The notes beneath the pieces are model-generated. The model was not told the DNA's origin, ran no database searches, and worked only from the letters and a program-made list of their open reading frames with translations. Both the position numbers and the translations under genes were made by a program. From a bacterium (GTDB lineage Bacteria; Planctomycetota; UBA11346): 31,642 nucleotides of DNA. The stretch spans positions 1 to 31,642 of the forward strand of contig JAIFKN010000274.1 in NCBI GenBank assembly GCA_020049615.1. Reading direction: 5' to 3'. Shown here one piece after another: positions 1,195 to 24,133 of this stretch; within the stretch, counting starts at the first letter, position 1; the number at the start of each line of letters is the position of its first letter.

Positions 1195-1853
1195 GGCTTT
1201 GCCTTCGCTTCTTCCTGGCGCAGCCGCTCGATCTCGGACTCGGTCATGATGCGGAAGCCGGGCGAGACCACGCCGCCAGCGGCCTCGACCTCCTTCTGGA
1301 TGCGCAACTGGTCCTCGGACCGCGGCGCACCGGGCCGGATCGAGAACAGGCTGTAGCACACCGACACGGTGGCCGTGCGCGGATCGAGCTTGGGCGAGAA
1401 GGTGAAGGCGACCGGGAACTCCTTCTTCTCGCCGGCCAGGATGACCTGGTCGTTGAAGCAGAAGCACAGGCGCATGCCGAAGTGGGGTGTGGCAGAGATC
1501 GGGCTGACCTGGTGGATCGGGCGGATGTGCAGCGCTTCGCTGCCGGTGTTCTCGAGGTAGTAGGTGTTGAAGGCCTCGCGGCCGACCTCGACCTGCACCG
1601 ACGGCTGCTCGCTCCAGAACTTCACCGGCAACTGATCGTAGGTCCGCGACTCGAAGAAGACCTCGACGAAGCGCCCGGTCGGCGCCGGGGCTGCCACCGC
1701 CAACGCGGCGTTGTTGGGGTTCATCCCGGTGCCGGTCAGGGTGCACCACAGCGAATACAGGCGCGGCATGGCGAAGAACGCGAGCAGTCCCATGGTCACC
1801 GGCAGCCCGGCGACCAGAAGGACCAGGCTCCAGCGCGAGCGGATGGCGATCAT
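1191..1853 (-). CDS. ctaG: Cytochrome c oxidase assembly protein CtaG (Cox11 family)
   Basis: CtaG/Cox11 delivers copper to the CuB site of subunit I. The 220-residue protein has one N-terminal membrane anchor (about residues 8-30), the conserved cysteine in LWCTLTGTG (C37), and a periplasmic immunoglobulin-like domain with the copper-binding CFCF motif (C130 and C132) in the family setting RLCFCFNDQVILAGE. The C-terminal tail after about residue 175 is longer than in many relatives and ends in a charged helix (ESEIERLRQEEAKAKP). The ATG at 1853 overlaps the ctaB stop (ATGA). Its place between heme synthesis genes and coxC fits assembly of the oxidase encoded here. Confidence 0.93.
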   Translation of the reverse strand: MIAIRSRWSLVLLVAGLPVTMGLLAFFAMPRLYSLWCTLTGTGMNPNNAALAVAAPAPTGRFVEVFFESRTYDQLPVKFWSEQPSVQVEVGREAFNTYYLENTGSEALHIRPIHQVSPISATPHFGMRLCFCFNDQVILAGEKKEFPVAFTFSPKLDPRTATVSVCYSLFSIRPGAPRSEDQLRIQKEVEAAGGVVSPGFRIMTESEIERLRQEEAKAKP

Positions 1854-2743
1854 GCTGCCACCCTGAAGATGAAGCTGTCGATGATCAGGGCGAGGAACAG
1901 CAGGGCGAGGTGGACGATGGTGAAGCGGAACAGAGGCATGGTCTGCGGCACCGGTCGCCGCACATGCACCAGCACGCACCAGACCAGGAAGATCGCACCA
2001 AGTATGCAGGCCAGCGCCAGGTAGATCCAACTGCGGCTGAAGGCGGGAAGCAGCGGCAAGGCGATGGTGAAGGCCACCAGCACGACGCCATAGATGAGGA
2101 TCTGCCGTGTCGTCGCATCGATGCCGCGCACCACCGGCAGCATCGGGATGCCGGCGCGGGCGTAATCGTCCTTCAGCCTGATGGCCAGGGCCCAGACGTG
2201 CGGCGGCGTCCACAGGAAGATCAGGGCGAACAAGGCCCAGGCCGCCGGCGGCAGGGCGTTGTCCACCGCCGCCCACGCGATCATCGGGCCCATCGCCCCG
2301 GGCACGCCGCCGATCACGGTGGCGATCCAATAGCGTGGCTTCAGCCACAGGGTGTAGATGAAGGCATAGTATACGACGGTGACGACCGAGCACAGCACCG
2401 CCAACCAGCTGCCGTAGAAGTGCAGTTCCAGGAACGCCGCGATGCCGAGCATGCAGACCGAGAACGTCACCGCTGTGACCATGCCGATGCGGCCGGAAGG
2501 CAGCGGCCGGCGCTGCCGGGTGCGCGCCATGGCCGCGTCCTTGTCGCGCTCGAACATCTGGTTGAGTGCGTTGGCCGAGGCGCCGGTGGTGAACAGGGCG
2601 ATGATCAGCGGCCACAGCTGACCGAGGTCGGTGGCATAGCGCCCATGCACGGCCACCGCGGCGTAGCCGGTGAACACCGCCACCAGGGTGATACGGAACT
2701 TGGCCAGCCGCAGCAGGTCCAGGAGGAATGAGCCCAGACTCAT
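1850..2743 (-). CDS. ctaB: Protoheme IX farnesyltransferase (heme O synthase)
   Basis: This UbiA-family membrane prenyltransferase attaches a farnesyl group to protoheme IX to make heme O, the substrate of the neighbouring heme A synthase. The 297-residue product has about nine membrane segments. The first Asp-rich active-site loop is seen at about residues 58-82 (NALNQMFERD, then RTRQRRPLP), matching the CtaB pattern N-x-x-x-D-x-x-x-D-x-x-M-x-R-T. The second loop lies in the WTPPHVWALAI region with K-D-D-Y after it. The ATG at 2743 overlaps the ctaA stop by four bases, and the gene's own stop overlaps ctaG. The name cyoE is used for the same enzyme in other genomes. Confidence 0.94.
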   Translation of the reverse strand: MSLGSFLLDLLRLAKFRITLVAVFTGYAAVAVHGRYATDLGQLWPLIIALFTTGASANALNQMFERDKDAAMARTRQRRPLPSGRIGMVTAVTFSVCMLGIAAFLELHFYGSWLAVLCSVVTVVYYAFIYTLWLKPRYWIATVIGGVPGAMGPMIAWAAVDNALPPAAWALFALIFLWTPPHVWALAIRLKDDYARAGIPMLPVVRGIDATTRQILIYGVVLVAFTIALPLLPAFSRSWIYLALACILGAIFLVWCVLVHVRRPVPQTMPLFRFTIVHLALLFLALIIDSFIFRVAA

Positions 2744-3891
2744 GCCGGCAGCCTCTGCGCCTGCATCTGCTCCTGGCCGTGCTTCAGGTCGTGGGCGGCC
2801 AGGACCAGGGCGAGGAACAGGACATGGCCGAGGAACAGATGGGCCAGCGGTACCGCCACCTCGCCGCGCGGCATCACCGCGGCGGCGATGCCCAGCACCG
2901 CCTGCAGGGCGACGAAGGTACCCGCCACCGACAGCGCCAGCCGGACGCGCTCGGGAGCACCACGGCGGTGGGCGACGACCACGGCCCAGACCACCAGCCC
3001 GGCGACCAGCACGGCCCCGAGCCGATGCACCAGATGGTGCAGGCTGGCGTTGTCGAGGATGTTGGTGGAGAACGAGGCGGCCGGCCACCACATCGGCCCG
3101 GCATCGAGGCCGAGCAGTCCGCCGGACGGCAGGTTGTGCCTGCTGGCGGCAAGCAGGCCGCCAAGCATCAGCATGAGCCAGACGCAGGCGGCGGCAGCGA
3201 CCACGAGCCTCCTGGGACCGACGAGCTCCAGATCGTCGGAACGCCGCTTGCCGGCGATCTGGAACTCGTCGGTCCCAGGTCCGAGCAGGCGCAGGATGGC
3301 GACCAGCACGCAGCCGAGGATCAGCGCAGCGTTGCCCTGGTGCAGGAACAGCCAGCGCGTCGAGGTGCCCTGCCCGATCAGCGCAGCACCGAGGACAGCC
3401 TGGGTCGCGATCAGCAGCACCGCCAGACCGACCGGCACGCCGATGCGCGCACGCAGGCTGCGGTCGGCGAGCACGGTGCCGAGGCACGCCAGCGCGAGCA
3501 GGCCGACAGCGGCGGCAAGCAGGCGATGGAACCATTCGATCAGGAACATGCCGCGGAAGTCGCCGATCGACTCCGGCTGCCGGCCGAGGGCTGCTCCGTG
3601 GATCTCACCAGCATCGATCTTGGCGCGCAACGTCGCCTGATGCGACGCCCAGGCGGCGTGCGCTGCGGTCCAGCCCGCCTCGGAAAGCGGCGGGAGCAGG
3701 GTCTTGCGGCCCTCGTCGAGCTCGATCACCGGCCAGTGCGGGATGGCGACCCCGGCTCCGGACAGACGCACCCAGCCGCCAGCGGTGTTCAGGCAGAACA
3801 GGCCGGTGAGCAGGACGGTGAGCCAGCCGGCCAGCACCACGCGCGGCGCGGTGGCTTCCACGCACTGCTGCGGCGCGGCCAGGCTGGTCAT
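2740..3891 (-). CDS. ctaA: Heme A synthase
   Basis: CtaA oxidises the C8 methyl of heme O to a formyl group, giving heme A for subunit I. The 383-residue protein has the expected two four-helix halves. Putative heme-ligand histidines are H122 (EWFHRL) and H184 (LHQGNA) in the first half and H289 (LVHRLGA) plus H351 or H356 in the second. The ATG lies three bases after the stop of the coxA tail frame. Odd feature: residues 205-227 (PGTDEFQIAG to VGPR), in the linker between helices 4 and 5, are encoded by a nearly perfect 69-bp palindrome, listed separately. The linker is strongly charged and looks like an in-frame insertion, though the rest of the protein is intact. Confidence 0.92.
   Translation of the reverse strand: MTSLAAPQQCVEATAPRVVLAGWLTVLLTGLFCLNTAGGWVRLSGAGVAIPHWPVIELDEGRKTLLPPLSEAGWTAAHAAWASHQATLRAKIDAGEIHGAALGRQPESIGDFRGMFLIEWFHRLLAAAVGLLALACLGTVLADRSLRARIGVPVGLAVLLIATQAVLGAALIGQGTSTRWLFLHQGNAALILGCVLVAILRLLGPGTDEFQIAGKRRSDDLELVGPRRLVVAAAACVWLMLMLGGLLAASRHNLPSGGLLGLDAGPMWWPAASFSTNILDNASLHHLVHRLGAVLVAGLVVWAVVVAHRRGAPERVRLALSVAGTFVALQAVLGIAAAVMPRGEVAVPLAHLFLGHVLFLALVLAAHDLKHGQEQMQAQRLPA
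3211..3279. repeat. 69-bp in-frame palindrome inside ctaA
   Basis: The left arm 3211-3239 and right arm 3251-3279 are each 29 bp and are reverse complements except at two positions; 11 bases separate them. Read on the minus strand the element is exactly 23 codons, beginning at the first base of ctaA codon 205 and ending at the last base of codon 227, so it leaves the frame intact. The encoded segment is hydrophilic and sits between membrane helices 4 and 5. This resembles what an in-frame palindromic insertion element would leave, but I found no second copy of this arm sequence in the window. Confidence 0.85.
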
Positions 3892-3894
3892 CGC

Positions 3895-5548
3895 TTAATG
3901 CTTGCCCATCTGGTCGGCGACCGGGATGGGCGGGGTGGTCTCGAATCGCCCACTCGAACGACTGCTGCACCTCGTTGACCTGCCAGGGGTCGTCTTCGGT
4001 CACCTTGGGCCGGCCGTAGCTGCGCAGCAGGTCGATGACGAACCACACCGAAGCGATGAAGGTCAGTGCGTAGCCCATGGTGGTGACGTGGTTGAGGACC
4101 AGGAAGTCCTTGAAGTACACCGGCACGCGCCGCGCCATGCCGAGTGCACCGGTCAGATGCATGGTCATGAAGGCGAGGAAGATGCCGACCAGCATGATCC
4201 AGAAGATCCAGTTGCCCTGCTTCTCGCACAGCATGCGGCCGGTCATCTTCGGCCACCAGTAGTAGGTCATCGCGAACAGCAGCATCACCGAGCCGCCGAC
4301 CATGGCCATGTGGAAGTGGCCGACCACGAAATAGCTGTCGTGCATCGACATGTCGATCGGAGTGAGGGCGAGGAAGAGGCCGCCGAAACCGCCGAAGACG
4401 AACATGCTGATGAAGCCGCACGCGAACTTCATCGCCGTGGTGAAGCGGAGGGTGCCGCCCCACATCGTCGCCAGCCAGGAGAAGATCTTGATGCCGGTCG
4501 GCACGGCGATGACCAGCGAGGCGTACATGAAGAAGGCCTGCAGCCAGGTCGGCATGCCGACCGTGAACATGTGGTGCGCCCAGACCATGAAGCCGATGAA
4601 GCTGATGATGCCGACGGCGATGACCATGCCGAGGTAGCCGAATATCTTCTTGTGGCTGAAGGCGGCGAAGACGTGGCTGATCGCGCCGAAGCCGGGCAGG
4701 ATCATGATGTAGACCGCCGGATGGCTGTAGAACCAGAAGATGTGCTGATACAGGACCGGATCGCCACCCTGGCTCGCCTTGGTGAAGGTGGTGCCGAAGT
4801 TGCGGTCCATCAGGATCATGGTCACGGCGGCGGCCAGCACCGGGGTGGCGATGAGCTGGATGATCGAGGTGAAGAACGTCGCCCAGACGAACAGCGGCAT
4901 CTTCAGCCAGCCCATGCCGGGAGCGCGCAGCGAGATGATGGTGACGATGAAGTTGATCGCGGCGAGGATCGAGGAGACGCCGACGAGATGCACGCCGAGG
5001 ATCCACATGTCCTGGCCCGGTCCGGCGCTGGCCTCCTTGAGCGAGAGCGGCGGATAGGCGGTCCAGCCCGAGGCGGCGGCGCCACCGACGACGAAGAAGC
5101 TGGACAGCTGCAGCACCGCAGCCGGGATCAGCAGCCAGAAGCCCAAGGCGTTCAGCTTGGGGAAGGCCATGTCGCGTGCGCCGATCATCAGCGGAACGAT
5201 GTAGTTGGCGAAGCCGATGAAGCCCGGAATGAGGACGAAGAAGATCATCACGCTGGCATGCATGGTGACCATCTGGTTGTACAGGTGGCGGTCGCCGAAC
5301 ATGCCGTTGGCGTCGGAGAACAGGCTGACCGCGTTGGTGCCGGTGAGAGCGGCCTGCTGCAGTGCCTCGACCGTGGCGCCGGGCATGGCCAGCTGGACGC
5401 GGATGGCGCCGGCCATCGCCCCGCCGACCAGGGCGCTGAAGATGACCAGCCAGAAGTACATCAGGCCGATCTTCTTGTGATCGACCGTGGTCAGCCAGTC
5501 CATCACGCCGGTATAGCGCTTGATCGGCGGCATCGGGGAATCGCTCAT
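3895..5548 (-). CDS. coxA: Cytochrome c oxidase subunit I, A2-type, frameshifted near its 3' end
   Basis: This is the catalytic subunit with heme a, heme a3 and CuB, reducing oxygen and pumping protons. About 12 membrane helices are seen. Ligand positions are H97 (TMHAS), H276 and Y280 (FYSHPAVY, the His-Tyr pair), H325-H326 (AHHMF), H411 and H413 (VGHFH). Y274-S275 in place of the helix-VI glutamate is the A2-type signature known from caa3 oxidases of Thermus and Rhodothermus. The frame from the ATG at 5548 is sound to about 3950 (QQSFEW). After this it runs on through ctaA to a stop at 3605 with Arg/Pro-rich nonsense. One frame over, the sequence reads FETTPPIPVADQMGKH and stops at 3897-3895, three bases before ctaA. 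I take that as the true end, so a shift lies near 3945-3950. Confidence 0.9.
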
Positions 5549-22033: not shown

Positions 22034-24133
22034 CTATTCCGCCAGGTCGACTGCGCAGCGGAAGCCGATCGTGGCGCAGCGGTCCCAGCCATCGTGCAGC
22101 AGGATCTGCTTCGCCACCCAGTCGGCGGATCGCGCTCCGCCATCGAACAGCCAGGCGCTGCCCTGGCCCTGGTAGTGGCAGCCGCCCTTCAAGAGCACGT
22201 AGCGGGTGTGCCCGTCGCTACGCTCGCTCTCGGTCAGCTCCCAGACGTTGCCGCACATGTCCCAGGCGCCGATCGCGCTGCGGCCGTCGGGGTGGGCGCG
22301 CACCGGGGTCGTCCGGCCGGTCTCGGAGCCGGTGCGGCGGGCTGGATCGTCCTCGGCGCCCCACGGCCAGCAGGCGTCGGCCGGGCCGAGGGCGGCGCGC
22401 TGCCACTCCTCCTCGCGCGGCAGGCGCTTGCCGCACCACGCGGCGTAGGCGCGGGCGTCCGCCAGGCTGACATAGACCACCGGGTGGTCCTCGCTACCGG
22501 GAACCGGGCGACCATCGCACCAGTGGTCAAGGAAGCGGTGCGCGACCTGCGGACGGTAGCCGGTGGCAGCGAGGAAGCTGGCGAACTCGGCGTTGGTCAC
22601 CGGCACCTCGTCGATCGCCACCGCCCGCACCGCGGCCAGGCGCCGGTCGGTCATCACCGACTCCATCCCATCATAGACATGGCGTTCACCCGGCGTGCCG
22701 GCGATATGGCCGCATTCGCGCATGCGGAAGCGGCTCTCGAAGAGGCCGCTCCAGTCGGGGATGCGCAGCATCCCCGACTGGAGGACGGCGTTCCGGCAGG
22801 TCGCCGGGACCTGACGCAGGTGGTGCACGGCCGGCGTACGGCAGTGCTCGCCGGACCAGAGATGCGGCAGGTAGGTGCCGGCCGAGGCCCTGGCGCGCTG
22901 GGTGGCGAGGAAGGCCGCCAGATCGGCGTCGATGGCAGGCACCGCCAGCACGCCGGCAATGCCGTCGCGTTCGATCACTCCGCGCAGTGCGACCACGCCG
23001 TCCTTCACCTCGCCCAGTTCGAACTCCTGGCCGTTGATGACATCGACGTAACGGTGGCCCGGCAGGTGCGGCAGGCGCAGCACCGTGTGCTGGATCGCGT
23101 GGCCGCGGCGATTCGCCACCGTCCACAGGCTGATCCCCTGATGGGTGAAGCGGCTGGCGTACACCGCGTCGGGCCGGCCGGCGCCGACATGCGGCTCCCA
23201 GGTGCCCTTGATGAAGTGCGCACTGTAGCGGCGTATCGCCGGGCCGAACAGCCGCAGCCAGGTGCGGGCGCGCTCGCACAACGGCGCCCAGTAGCCAAAC
23301 ACGTTCTCCCACACCACGAAGCCGTGACCACCCATCCAGGCGCGCTGGATCTCCCGGATCGGATCGGGGAAGTAGCGCCGCGTCTCGTAGACCAGATGGT
23401 GCCGGTCGAGCCAGCGGTTGCGGCAGATGCCGGGGGCGGCGCTGTCGTCGGTGAACTGCTGCCAACTCTGCACCTCATGGCCGAACGGTTCGGATTTGGC
23501 CGGCGCCTCCGAGCAGAAGGCGAGACCGGCATCGACCGCCGCCAGGGTGGTGCGCAACCGGTCGCTCGGACAGGCCTGGCAGTCGAGGAAGAACCCGTCG
23601 ATGCCGCAATCTGCCGCCAACTGGGCGAAGGCCTCGGCGTCGTCGGCCATGCCTGGCGGCAACCCGGGCACCCACGGTTTGTGGTCGAGCAGGACGCGCA
23701 CGCCACGGCGGTGGAAGGCCTCGACCGCGGCCCGGAGACCGGCGCGGCCGCCCGGCAGATCGTCGAAATAGTCGAACTGGTTGCGCTGGTCCAGCCCCGA
23801 CAGCGGATAGTTGTTCCACAGCACCACCGCATCCCAGCCGCCGAAGTCGCGCTCGACCCGGTCGAGCAGCCGGTCCACCGTCCAGGCGCCGGTGGCGTGG
23901 TCGATCAGGTCCTCGTCCCACAGCATGACCCAGCCCTGGAGATAGGCGCGGCTGGCCCAGGCCTGCGCCGCACGGTCGTAGAGCGGAACGCCGCCACGAC
24001 CCGCAGTGATCTCCGCGTCGCGCCAGGCGACCAGGCGCTCGCGCCAGGCCGGCCAGTCCGCTGCGTGCTCCGGAGCCGGAATGAAGGCGTTCTTCGCGGC
24101 AGCTGGGTCGGTTGCGGTTAAGGCTTCGGTCAT
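22034..24133 (-). CDS. Fusion of a TIM-barrel-like domain and a formylglycine-generating-enzyme-like domain
   Basis: The 699-residue protein has no signal peptide. Residues about 60-310 alternate strands and helices as in a (beta/alpha)8 glycosidase; strand ends carry VVLWNNYP (104-110), VLLDHKPW (148-154), GFFLD (D184) and FCSEA (E209), so D184 and E209 could be catalytic. Residues about 325-400 look like the C-terminal beta domain of such enzymes. Residues about 468-699 match the FGE/SUMF1 (sulfatase-modifying) superfamily: VDEVPVTN-type start (IDEVPVTNAEFASFL), HPVVYVSLADARAYAAWCGKRLPREEEWQRAA, MCGNVWELTES, LLKGGCHY and the terminal IGFRC. The usual Cys pair of true FGE is not present. The stop is 22 bases from the convergent enzyme gene. 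Confidence 0.78.
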   Translation of the reverse strand: MTEALTATDPAAAKNAFIPAPEHAADWPAWRERLVAWRDAEITAGRGGVPLYDRAAQAWASRAYLQGWVMLWDEDLIDHATGAWTVDRLLDRVERDFGGWDAVVLWNNYPLSGLDQRNQFDYFDDLPGGRAGLRAAVEAFHRRGVRVLLDHKPWVPGLPPGMADDAEAFAQLAADCGIDGFFLDCQACPSDRLRTTLAAVDAGLAFCSEAPAKSEPFGHEVQSWQQFTDDSAAPGICRNRWLDRHHLVYETRRYFPDPIREIQRAWMGGHGFVVWENVFGYWAPLCERARTWLRLFGPAIRRYSAHFIKGTWEPHVGAGRPDAVYASRFTHQGISLWTVANRRGHAIQHTVLRLPHLPGHRYVDVINGQEFELGEVKDGVVALRGVIERDGIAGVLAVPAIDADLAAFLATQRARASAGTYLPHLWSGEHCRTPAVHHLRQVPATCRNAVLQSGMLRIPDWSGLFESRFRMRECGHIAGTPGERHVYDGMESVMTDRRLAAVRAVAIDEVPVTNAEFASFLAATGYRPQVAHRFLDHWCDGRPVPGSEDHPVVYVSLADARAYAAWCGKRLPREEEWQRAALGPADACWPWGAEDDPARRTGSETGRTTPVRAHPDGRSAIGAWDMCGNVWELTESERSDGHTRYVLLKGGCHYQGQGSAWLFDGGARSADWVAKQILLHDGWDRCATIGFRCAVDLAE
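22749..22783. repeat. 35-bp perfect palindrome in the linker of the fusion gene
   Basis: CTCCAGTCGGGGATGC (22749-22764) and its exact reverse complement (22768-22783) are separated by only three bases. The palindrome begins on the first base of codon 451 and covers residues 451-462 (LQSGMLRIPDWS), at the junction just before the FGE-like domain. In RNA it would form a very strong 16-bp hairpin. Confidence 0.85.

What the first reader, a model, noticed from the sequence alone, without database searches (positions are those of the whole stretch)
3211..3279. A 69-bp palindrome inserted in phase as exactly 23 codons of ctaA
Two 29-bp arms with two mismatches flank an 11-base centre inside a membrane-protein gene. 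The element begins on a codon's first base and ends on a codon's last base, and it codes for a charged segment between helices 4 and 5, where extra residues should be tolerated. Chance symmetry of this length in coding DNA is not expected. It has the character of in-frame palindromic elements such as those known from Rickettsia, and may be a copy of an undescribed family.
Basis: partly seen in the sequence, partly recalled or inferred. Interest (0 to 1): 0.72.

Follow-up and report, generated by a model that had tools for sequence, protein, structure and literature searches.

The report
In-frame REP doublet in ctaA
A short repeated DNA palindrome, of a kind that usually sits between bacterial genes, lies in phase inside a gene for making the respiratory cofactor heme A, where it encodes a loop of the protein; such elements inside genes are known, so this is a new example with a slightly different signature rather than something unheard of.

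Summary
The palindrome is real: 3211-3279, two 29-bp arms with two mismatches, 11-nt centre, exactly codons 205-227 of ctaA; 0 of 2000 synonymous-codon shuffles reach its score. It is not peculiar to ctaA. Each arm is one unit of a family of tagged hairpins (CTGGGANCG + self-complementary stem) with copies between genes in two related Planctomycetota genomes (three in G001, two in G002), one of them a full doublet of nearly the same length and the same layout. Units with the same foot but other, compensating stems occur in further genomes of the family, where three Y1 (IS200-like) transposase genes carry them beside or inside the gene. This is the anatomy of REP doublets (REPINs) with RAYT transposases. 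In ctaA it encodes the loop between predicted membrane helices 4 and 5. Four other CtaA proteins have linkers that the unit could encode at the same place, and G002's ctaA has a decayed single unit near its start. A clean 23-codon insertion is not supported (net 11 codons over the nearest sequenced relative), and the element resembles REP doublets more than Rickettsia palindromes. Its own transposase was not found and the window's genome is not held.

The parts
3211..3279 (-). REP doublet (REPIN-like palindrome), codons 205-227 of ctaA
   Evidence: 29-bp arms, 2 mismatches, 11-nt centre; phase 0, 69 nt
3252..3278 (-). first REP unit in the direction of ctaA (CTGGGA foot + partly decayed hairpin stem)
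   Evidence: rows of alignments A3 and A5; below the 6-of-8 pair cut, so added by hand
3212..3238 (+). second REP unit, inverted (CTGGGA foot + hairpin, 7 of 8 stem pairs)
3240..3250 (.). centre between the arms
2740..3891 (-). ctaA, heme A synthase (383 aa), the gene that carries the element
   Evidence: Pfam COX15-CtaA, E 3.5e-32; PDB 6a2j heme A synthase, E 4.8e-8
1850..2743 (-). UbiA prenyltransferase (ctaB-like), next gene downstream
   Evidence: UbiA E 1.4e-51
3605..5548 (-). open frame holding cytochrome oxidase subunit I; overlaps the start of ctaA in another frame
   Evidence: COX1 E 5.4e-150, residues 26-493

Best explanation
The palindrome is a doublet of two REP-type units in inverted orientation (a REPIN-like element) that came to lie inside ctaA and was kept because it has no stop in any frame, its length is a multiple of three, and it falls in the loop between membrane helices 4 and 5. 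Shown: the palindrome, its relatives, the inverted-doublet layout, a stem with compensating changes across subfamilies, copies between genes in relatives, and Y1 transposase genes with same-foot units beside or inside them in other genomes of the family. Inferred: that a RAYT-like Y1 transposase moved it, that it arrived as a doublet, and that it is neutral in the protein and eroding.
For: Copies: five in G001 and G002, one (G002:C215) a complete 71-nt doublet. Their neighbours on both sides have Pfam matches (10 of 10, one, WD40, below its cut-off), while none of the 9 overlapping mechanical frames tested (of 13 listed) has one: they lie between genes. Hairpin: on 23 distinct units 6 of 8 stem pairs show changes on both sides (22 cells), 0 of 500 shuffles reach the covariation score (the units were chosen by foot and pairing, which inflates this). 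Y1 link: of 29 Y1_Tnp loci in 8 genomes, 4 have R1 hits at E < 0.01 (L257, L267, L253; L265 about 900 nt off). In L257 and L253 units lie on both sides of the Y1 domain; in L267 one unit precedes the 225-aa frame, one lies in its start and one in frame between the NHVH and YIHHNP motifs. ctaA: of 29 CtaA rows back-translated against the unit, the linkers of P0007 (29 of 29), window (28), P0001, P0002, P0003 (27 each) and the N-terminus of P0009 (26) exceed the maxima of 200 shuffles of one protein (highest 25); the 23 other rows score 23 or less. The matching N-terminus is seen in DNA in G002 (25 of 31 bases identical to each of two copies), and P0009 has 32 residues before the conserved W against 17-23 in 26 others. 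CtaA model: helix 181-203, loop pLDDT 60-75, helix 221-253.
Against: The window's own genome is not held, so copy number there is unknown. The subfamily is rare in its two relatives (three and two copies), unlike typical REPs. None of the seven Y1_Tnp genes of G001 and G002 has a convincing R1 hit near it (best E 0.035, far from the gene; nearer ones E 0.075 and weaker), so this subfamily's mobilising enzyme is not identified. The insert is not clean relative to L001. The family model was built from the window and these five copies, so their top rank is by construction. On the eight close units alone covariation is not significant (134 of 500 shuffles). P0047, a distant CtaA, reaches 25 and P0053 24 away from any linker when all 53 proteins are scanned, so 26 for P0009 is only just above background. 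A search for in-frame copies in other proteins found nothing, but it did not return the known carriers either and says little.
Confidence: 0.82

Rival explanations
1. The palindrome is selected for as a hairpin in the ctaA message or as a cruciform, for example pausing translation between the two halves of the protein or stabilising the operon transcript; its likeness to REPs is its origin, not its role.
For: Very stable fold; linkers that the unit could encode are found in four other proteins at the same place.
Against: P0001, the closest protein (91% identity), fits the unit well in one arm only (27 of 29 against 22 for the other); 23 of 26 other aligned rows lack the long linker; no expression data.
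Confidence: 0.07
2. A Rickettsia-like in-frame palindromic family specialised for insertion in coding DNA.
For: In frame, no stops in six frames; a second, decayed unit in frame in a relative's ctaA.
Against: The five confirmed copies in G001 and G002 lie between genes; foot differs from CGTC; same-foot units sit at Y1 transposase genes.
Confidence: 0.05
3. Ancestral linker that became self-complementary by codon use, without insertion.
For: The protein itself favours some symmetry: synonymous shuffles reach score 21 once in 2000; the L001 and P0003 linkers have equal length.
Against: The same sequence occurs outside genes in relatives; the G001:C148 copy pairs in all 8 stem positions.
Confidence: 0.04

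Closest known systems
REPINs / BIMEs with RAYT (TnpA-REP) transposases (Bertels and Rainey 2011, PMC3116915; Nunvar et al. 2010, PMC2817692; passages of both seen)
   Same: Two tagged hairpin units in inverted orientation, copies between genes, same-foot units on both sides of Y1 transposase genes in relatives. Pseudomonas putida REPs in Nunvar's Table 1 begin TGTGGGAGCGG, close to CTGGGAGCG plus stem here.
   Different: Foot CTGG(GA), not GTAG or GTGG; the window's subfamily is low-copy in two relatives; this copy is in a gene; its own transposase was not found.
Intragenic REP dimers of Di Nocera et al. 2013 (PMC3733652; abstract, sections 6, 15, 16 and passages read)
   Same: Section 15: more than half of the inserts in ORFs are dimers or groups that encode 20 to 30 amino acids; here 23.
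   Different: Those belong to GTAG or CGTC families; this has neither foot.
REP insertions in tnpA-REP genes and 'double foot' REPs, subclass 2.4 of PMC6006769 (passages seen)
   Different: The class of these transposases was not tested by phylogeny here.
Rickettsia palindromic elements (RPE)
   Same: Palindrome kept in frame in a protein gene.
   Different: Foot differs by the description in PMC3733652; no sequence comparison with RPEs was run.

Membership tests
REPIN (REP doublet forming a hairpin) | two REP units in inverted orientation with a spacer, folding as one hairpin | tested here: met
REPIN (REP doublet forming a hairpin) | many copies in the host genome | not testable with these tools
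   own genome not held; relatives hold three (G001) and two (G002) copies, which is low
REPIN (REP doublet forming a hairpin) | mainly extragenic | tested here: inconclusive
   5 of 5 confirmed copies in G001 and G002 lie between genes with Pfam matches; the window's copy does not
REPIN (REP doublet forming a hairpin) | a RAYT gene with the same REP type beside it | tested here: inconclusive
   same-foot subfamilies at 4 of 29 Y1 loci in 8 genomes; none for the window's subfamily at the seven Y1 genes of G001 and G002
GTAG- or CGTC-tagged REPs (Di Nocera) | foot GTAG or CGTC | tested here: not met
   foot CTGGGA in the eight close units
Canonical REP of PMC6006769 | GT[AG]G foot 5' of the hairpin | tested here: not met
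   foot CTGG
Rickettsia palindromic elements | in-frame copies in many unrelated genes of one genome | not testable with these tools
   own genome not held; the protein search found nothing but was insensitive
MITE | target-site duplication | not tested
   no close empty site; by eye no direct repeat beyond about 3 nt at the ends

The most novel reading that the evidence does not exclude
The helix 4-5 linker of CtaA is a recurrent landing place for REP doublets: proteins whose linker the unit could encode do not form one clade (p-AU 0.015, group named after seeing the tree; P0007 stands apart from window, P0001, P0002 and P0003), and a relative has a single unit elsewhere in the same gene, so the same in-frame site may have been hit more than once rather than inherited and lost.
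Probability: 0.25. Interest if true: 0.55.

Novelty: new variant of a known kind. Interest (0 to 1): 0.42.

Why it matters
It gives a worked case of a mobile-type non-coding repeat becoming protein sequence in a conserved membrane enzyme, with likely intermediates (full doublet, compact form, one-arm decay, single unit) in related proteins. It also points to a CTGGGA-footed REP superfamily with Y1 transposases in this planctomycete family, in which one could follow how such repeats enter genes.

Tried and rejected
No other copy in the window. Rfam gave seven matches, all far below the gathering scores, to microRNA families and one ribozyme, as expected of a long hairpin. Plasmid records: no match. 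In-frame copies in other proteins: none at E <= 10 among 63 candidates, but known carriers were not returned either. Exact core GACGAGCTGGAGCTCGTC in 294 genomes drawn from the phylum: 3 (G001, G002, G060); the G060 hit was not followed. The full-element search of 23 genomes of the family gave hits at E <= 0.05 in 12; outside G001 and G002 the best is E 0.0039 over 33 bases and I do not count them. Of 24 distinct units I dropped two as chance and added the window's other unit, giving the 23 rows (window and ten genomes). R1 lists matches at E <= 1 in 23 of 23 genomes, at most 150 candidates scored per genome; most are weak and not counted. An alignment of 21 units was badly gapped and not used. 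Tag control: 9 CTGGGA hairpins in 0.88 Mb of G001 against a mean of 3.0 for four other tags, 6 against 3.25 in 0.92 Mb of G002, a modest excess that includes other stems. RepRanger paper PMC12306157: passages seen, no mention of planctomycetes or intragenic REPs by those words.

Full report
Observation. The inverted repeat at 3211-3279 is as described: 29-bp arms, two mismatches, 11-nt centre, phase 0, codons 205-227 of ctaA. The gene is a heme A synthase in a cluster with a UbiA prenyltransferase and cytochrome oxidase subunits I, II and III. Neither synonymous-codon nor codon-order shuffles reach its score in 2000 trials each.

Family. No genome is held for the window, so I worked with relatives. 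One scan of the genome collection with a CtaA alignment gave 17 loci, the nearest 87% identical (L001, genome G001). The 81-nt query found copies in G001 and G002; reading them showed three partial copies in G001 and, in G002, one complete doublet of 71 nt and one compact 36-nt palindrome. The genes on both sides of each have Pfam matches (one, WD40, below its cut-off) and none of 9 overlapping mechanical frames tested, of 13, has one, so I take all five to lie between genes. At C215 a stop codon is 2 nt before the element, at C58 one is 5 nt beyond it, and at C148 the GGGGCAAT stretch joined to the unit begins at a stop codon, the unit itself 18 nt on. The shared unit is CTGGGANCGA(C/T)GAG..CCAG.TC(G/A)TCG, with small departures in some rows.

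Architecture. A covariance model of the unit was run over 23 genomes of the family. The copies it was built from came first, by construction; after them came units with the same foot but other stems. Reading 20 regions showed inverted doublets in G014, G001 and G016, one also in G012 (L222), and a tandem array in G005. On 23 distinct units from the window and ten genomes, 6 of 8 stem pairs have compensating changes (22 cells), with 0 of 500 shuffles reaching the covariation score. The units were picked by foot and by pairing of at least 6 of 8, so this is inflated; still, stems such as GACGAGC/GCTCGTC, GTCGAGC/GCTCGAC, GGCGAGC/GCTCGCC and GCCAAGC/GCTTGGC on one foot point to a kept hairpin. 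On the eight close units alone it was not significant.

Transposase. Y1_Tnp genes occur in 5 of 7 genomes first searched, G001 and G002 among them, and in 8 of 8 of a second set that shares G005. Those of G001 and G002 have no convincing unit of this kind beside them; some have other REP types, such as GTAG doublets on both sides in G002:C40. In 4 of 29 loci of the second set R1 hits at E < 0.01 occur. In G005:C7 (L257) and G011:C31 (L253) they lie on both sides of the Y1 domain, partly inside the long open frame; in G014:C52 (L267) one lies just before the frame, one in its start and one inside it, between the motifs NHVH and YIHHNP, which I name after the table in PMC6006769. In L265 the hit is about 900 nt away. 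PMC6006769 describes such in-frame insertions for its subclass 2.4.

The ctaA insertion. In an alignment of 27 rows the segment that holds the linker is 30 residues in window, P0001 and P0002, 32 in P0007 and 13-25 in the 23 others. A back-translation scan of 29 rows against a unit equal to the G001:C148 copy picks out the linkers of P0007, window, P0001, P0002 and P0003 and the N-terminus of P0009, each above the highest of 200 shuffles of P0005 (25); the 23 other rows score 23 or less. Over all 53 proteins P0047 reaches 25 and P0053 24 elsewhere in the protein. P0003's short linker scores 27 in both orientations at overlapping places, as a compact unit would. The N-terminal unit is seen in DNA in G002, where R1 gives E 3e-4 and 25 of 31 bases match each of two copies; P0009 has 32 residues there against 17-23. 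A tree without the linker puts window with P0001 (98/88) and these weakly with P0002 (84/71); the four carriers other than P0007 are together with low support (72/48), and all five as one clade are rejected (p-AU 0.015, the group named after the tree was seen). Two changes suffice on the tree, so two gains, or an early gain with losses, remain open.

Why tolerated. The predicted structure (mean pLDDT 86.9) has helix 181-203, a stretch of pLDDT 60-75 with one short helix, and helix 221-253, so the element makes the loop and the first turns of the next membrane helix. The profile aligns this place to the linker of the solved heme A synthase 6a2j.

Comparison with print. Paper searches (open-licence papers only) led to Di Nocera et al. 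2013 as the main treatment of REPs inside genes (sections 6, 15 and 16 read). It reports GTAG repeats in the superphylum of Planctomycetes, Verrucomicrobia and Chlamydiales. I found no description of a CTGGGA-footed family in planctomycetes in those searches. PMC6006769 does describe, for a planctomycete-rich class 3 of Y1 proteins, atypical hairpins with a CnGA foot; whether these are related was not tested. Filing: it works like a REPIN; strict membership in GTAG, CGTC or GT[AG]G families fails on the foot.

Noticed in passing
window 22749-22783: A perfect palindrome, 16-bp arms with a 3-nt loop, in phase in the 700-codon ORF 22034-24133 (-), from codon 451; 0 of 500 synonymous shuffles reach its score of 16. 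Not the CTGGGA family.
   Followed up: partly
window about 3900-3960: The subunit I frame (3605-5548) runs on into ctaA: a C-terminal peptide like that upstream of ctaA in G002 (PPIPVADQMGKH, L243) lies in another frame of the window just before ctaA; a frameshift or a sequencing error.
   Followed up: partly
L133, L153, L178, L207, L211 and others (G001, G002): Inverted arrays of 7-nt tandem units (AAGGCGG, GTTCGTG, AGCTTTG and similar) flank short spacers and form long hairpins.
   Followed up: no
L161, L163, L239, L240 (G001), L158 (G002): The motif GGGGCAAT stands next to REP hairpins of different subfamilies, and CATTGCC ends occur in other palindromes.
   Followed up: no
L156 603-699 and 1393-1491: Long GTAG-type REP doublets on both sides of a Y1 transposase gene in G002.
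   Followed up: partly
L230 (G005:C3:194050-194500): REP units in tandem with a 63-nt period, four in a row.
   Followed up: no
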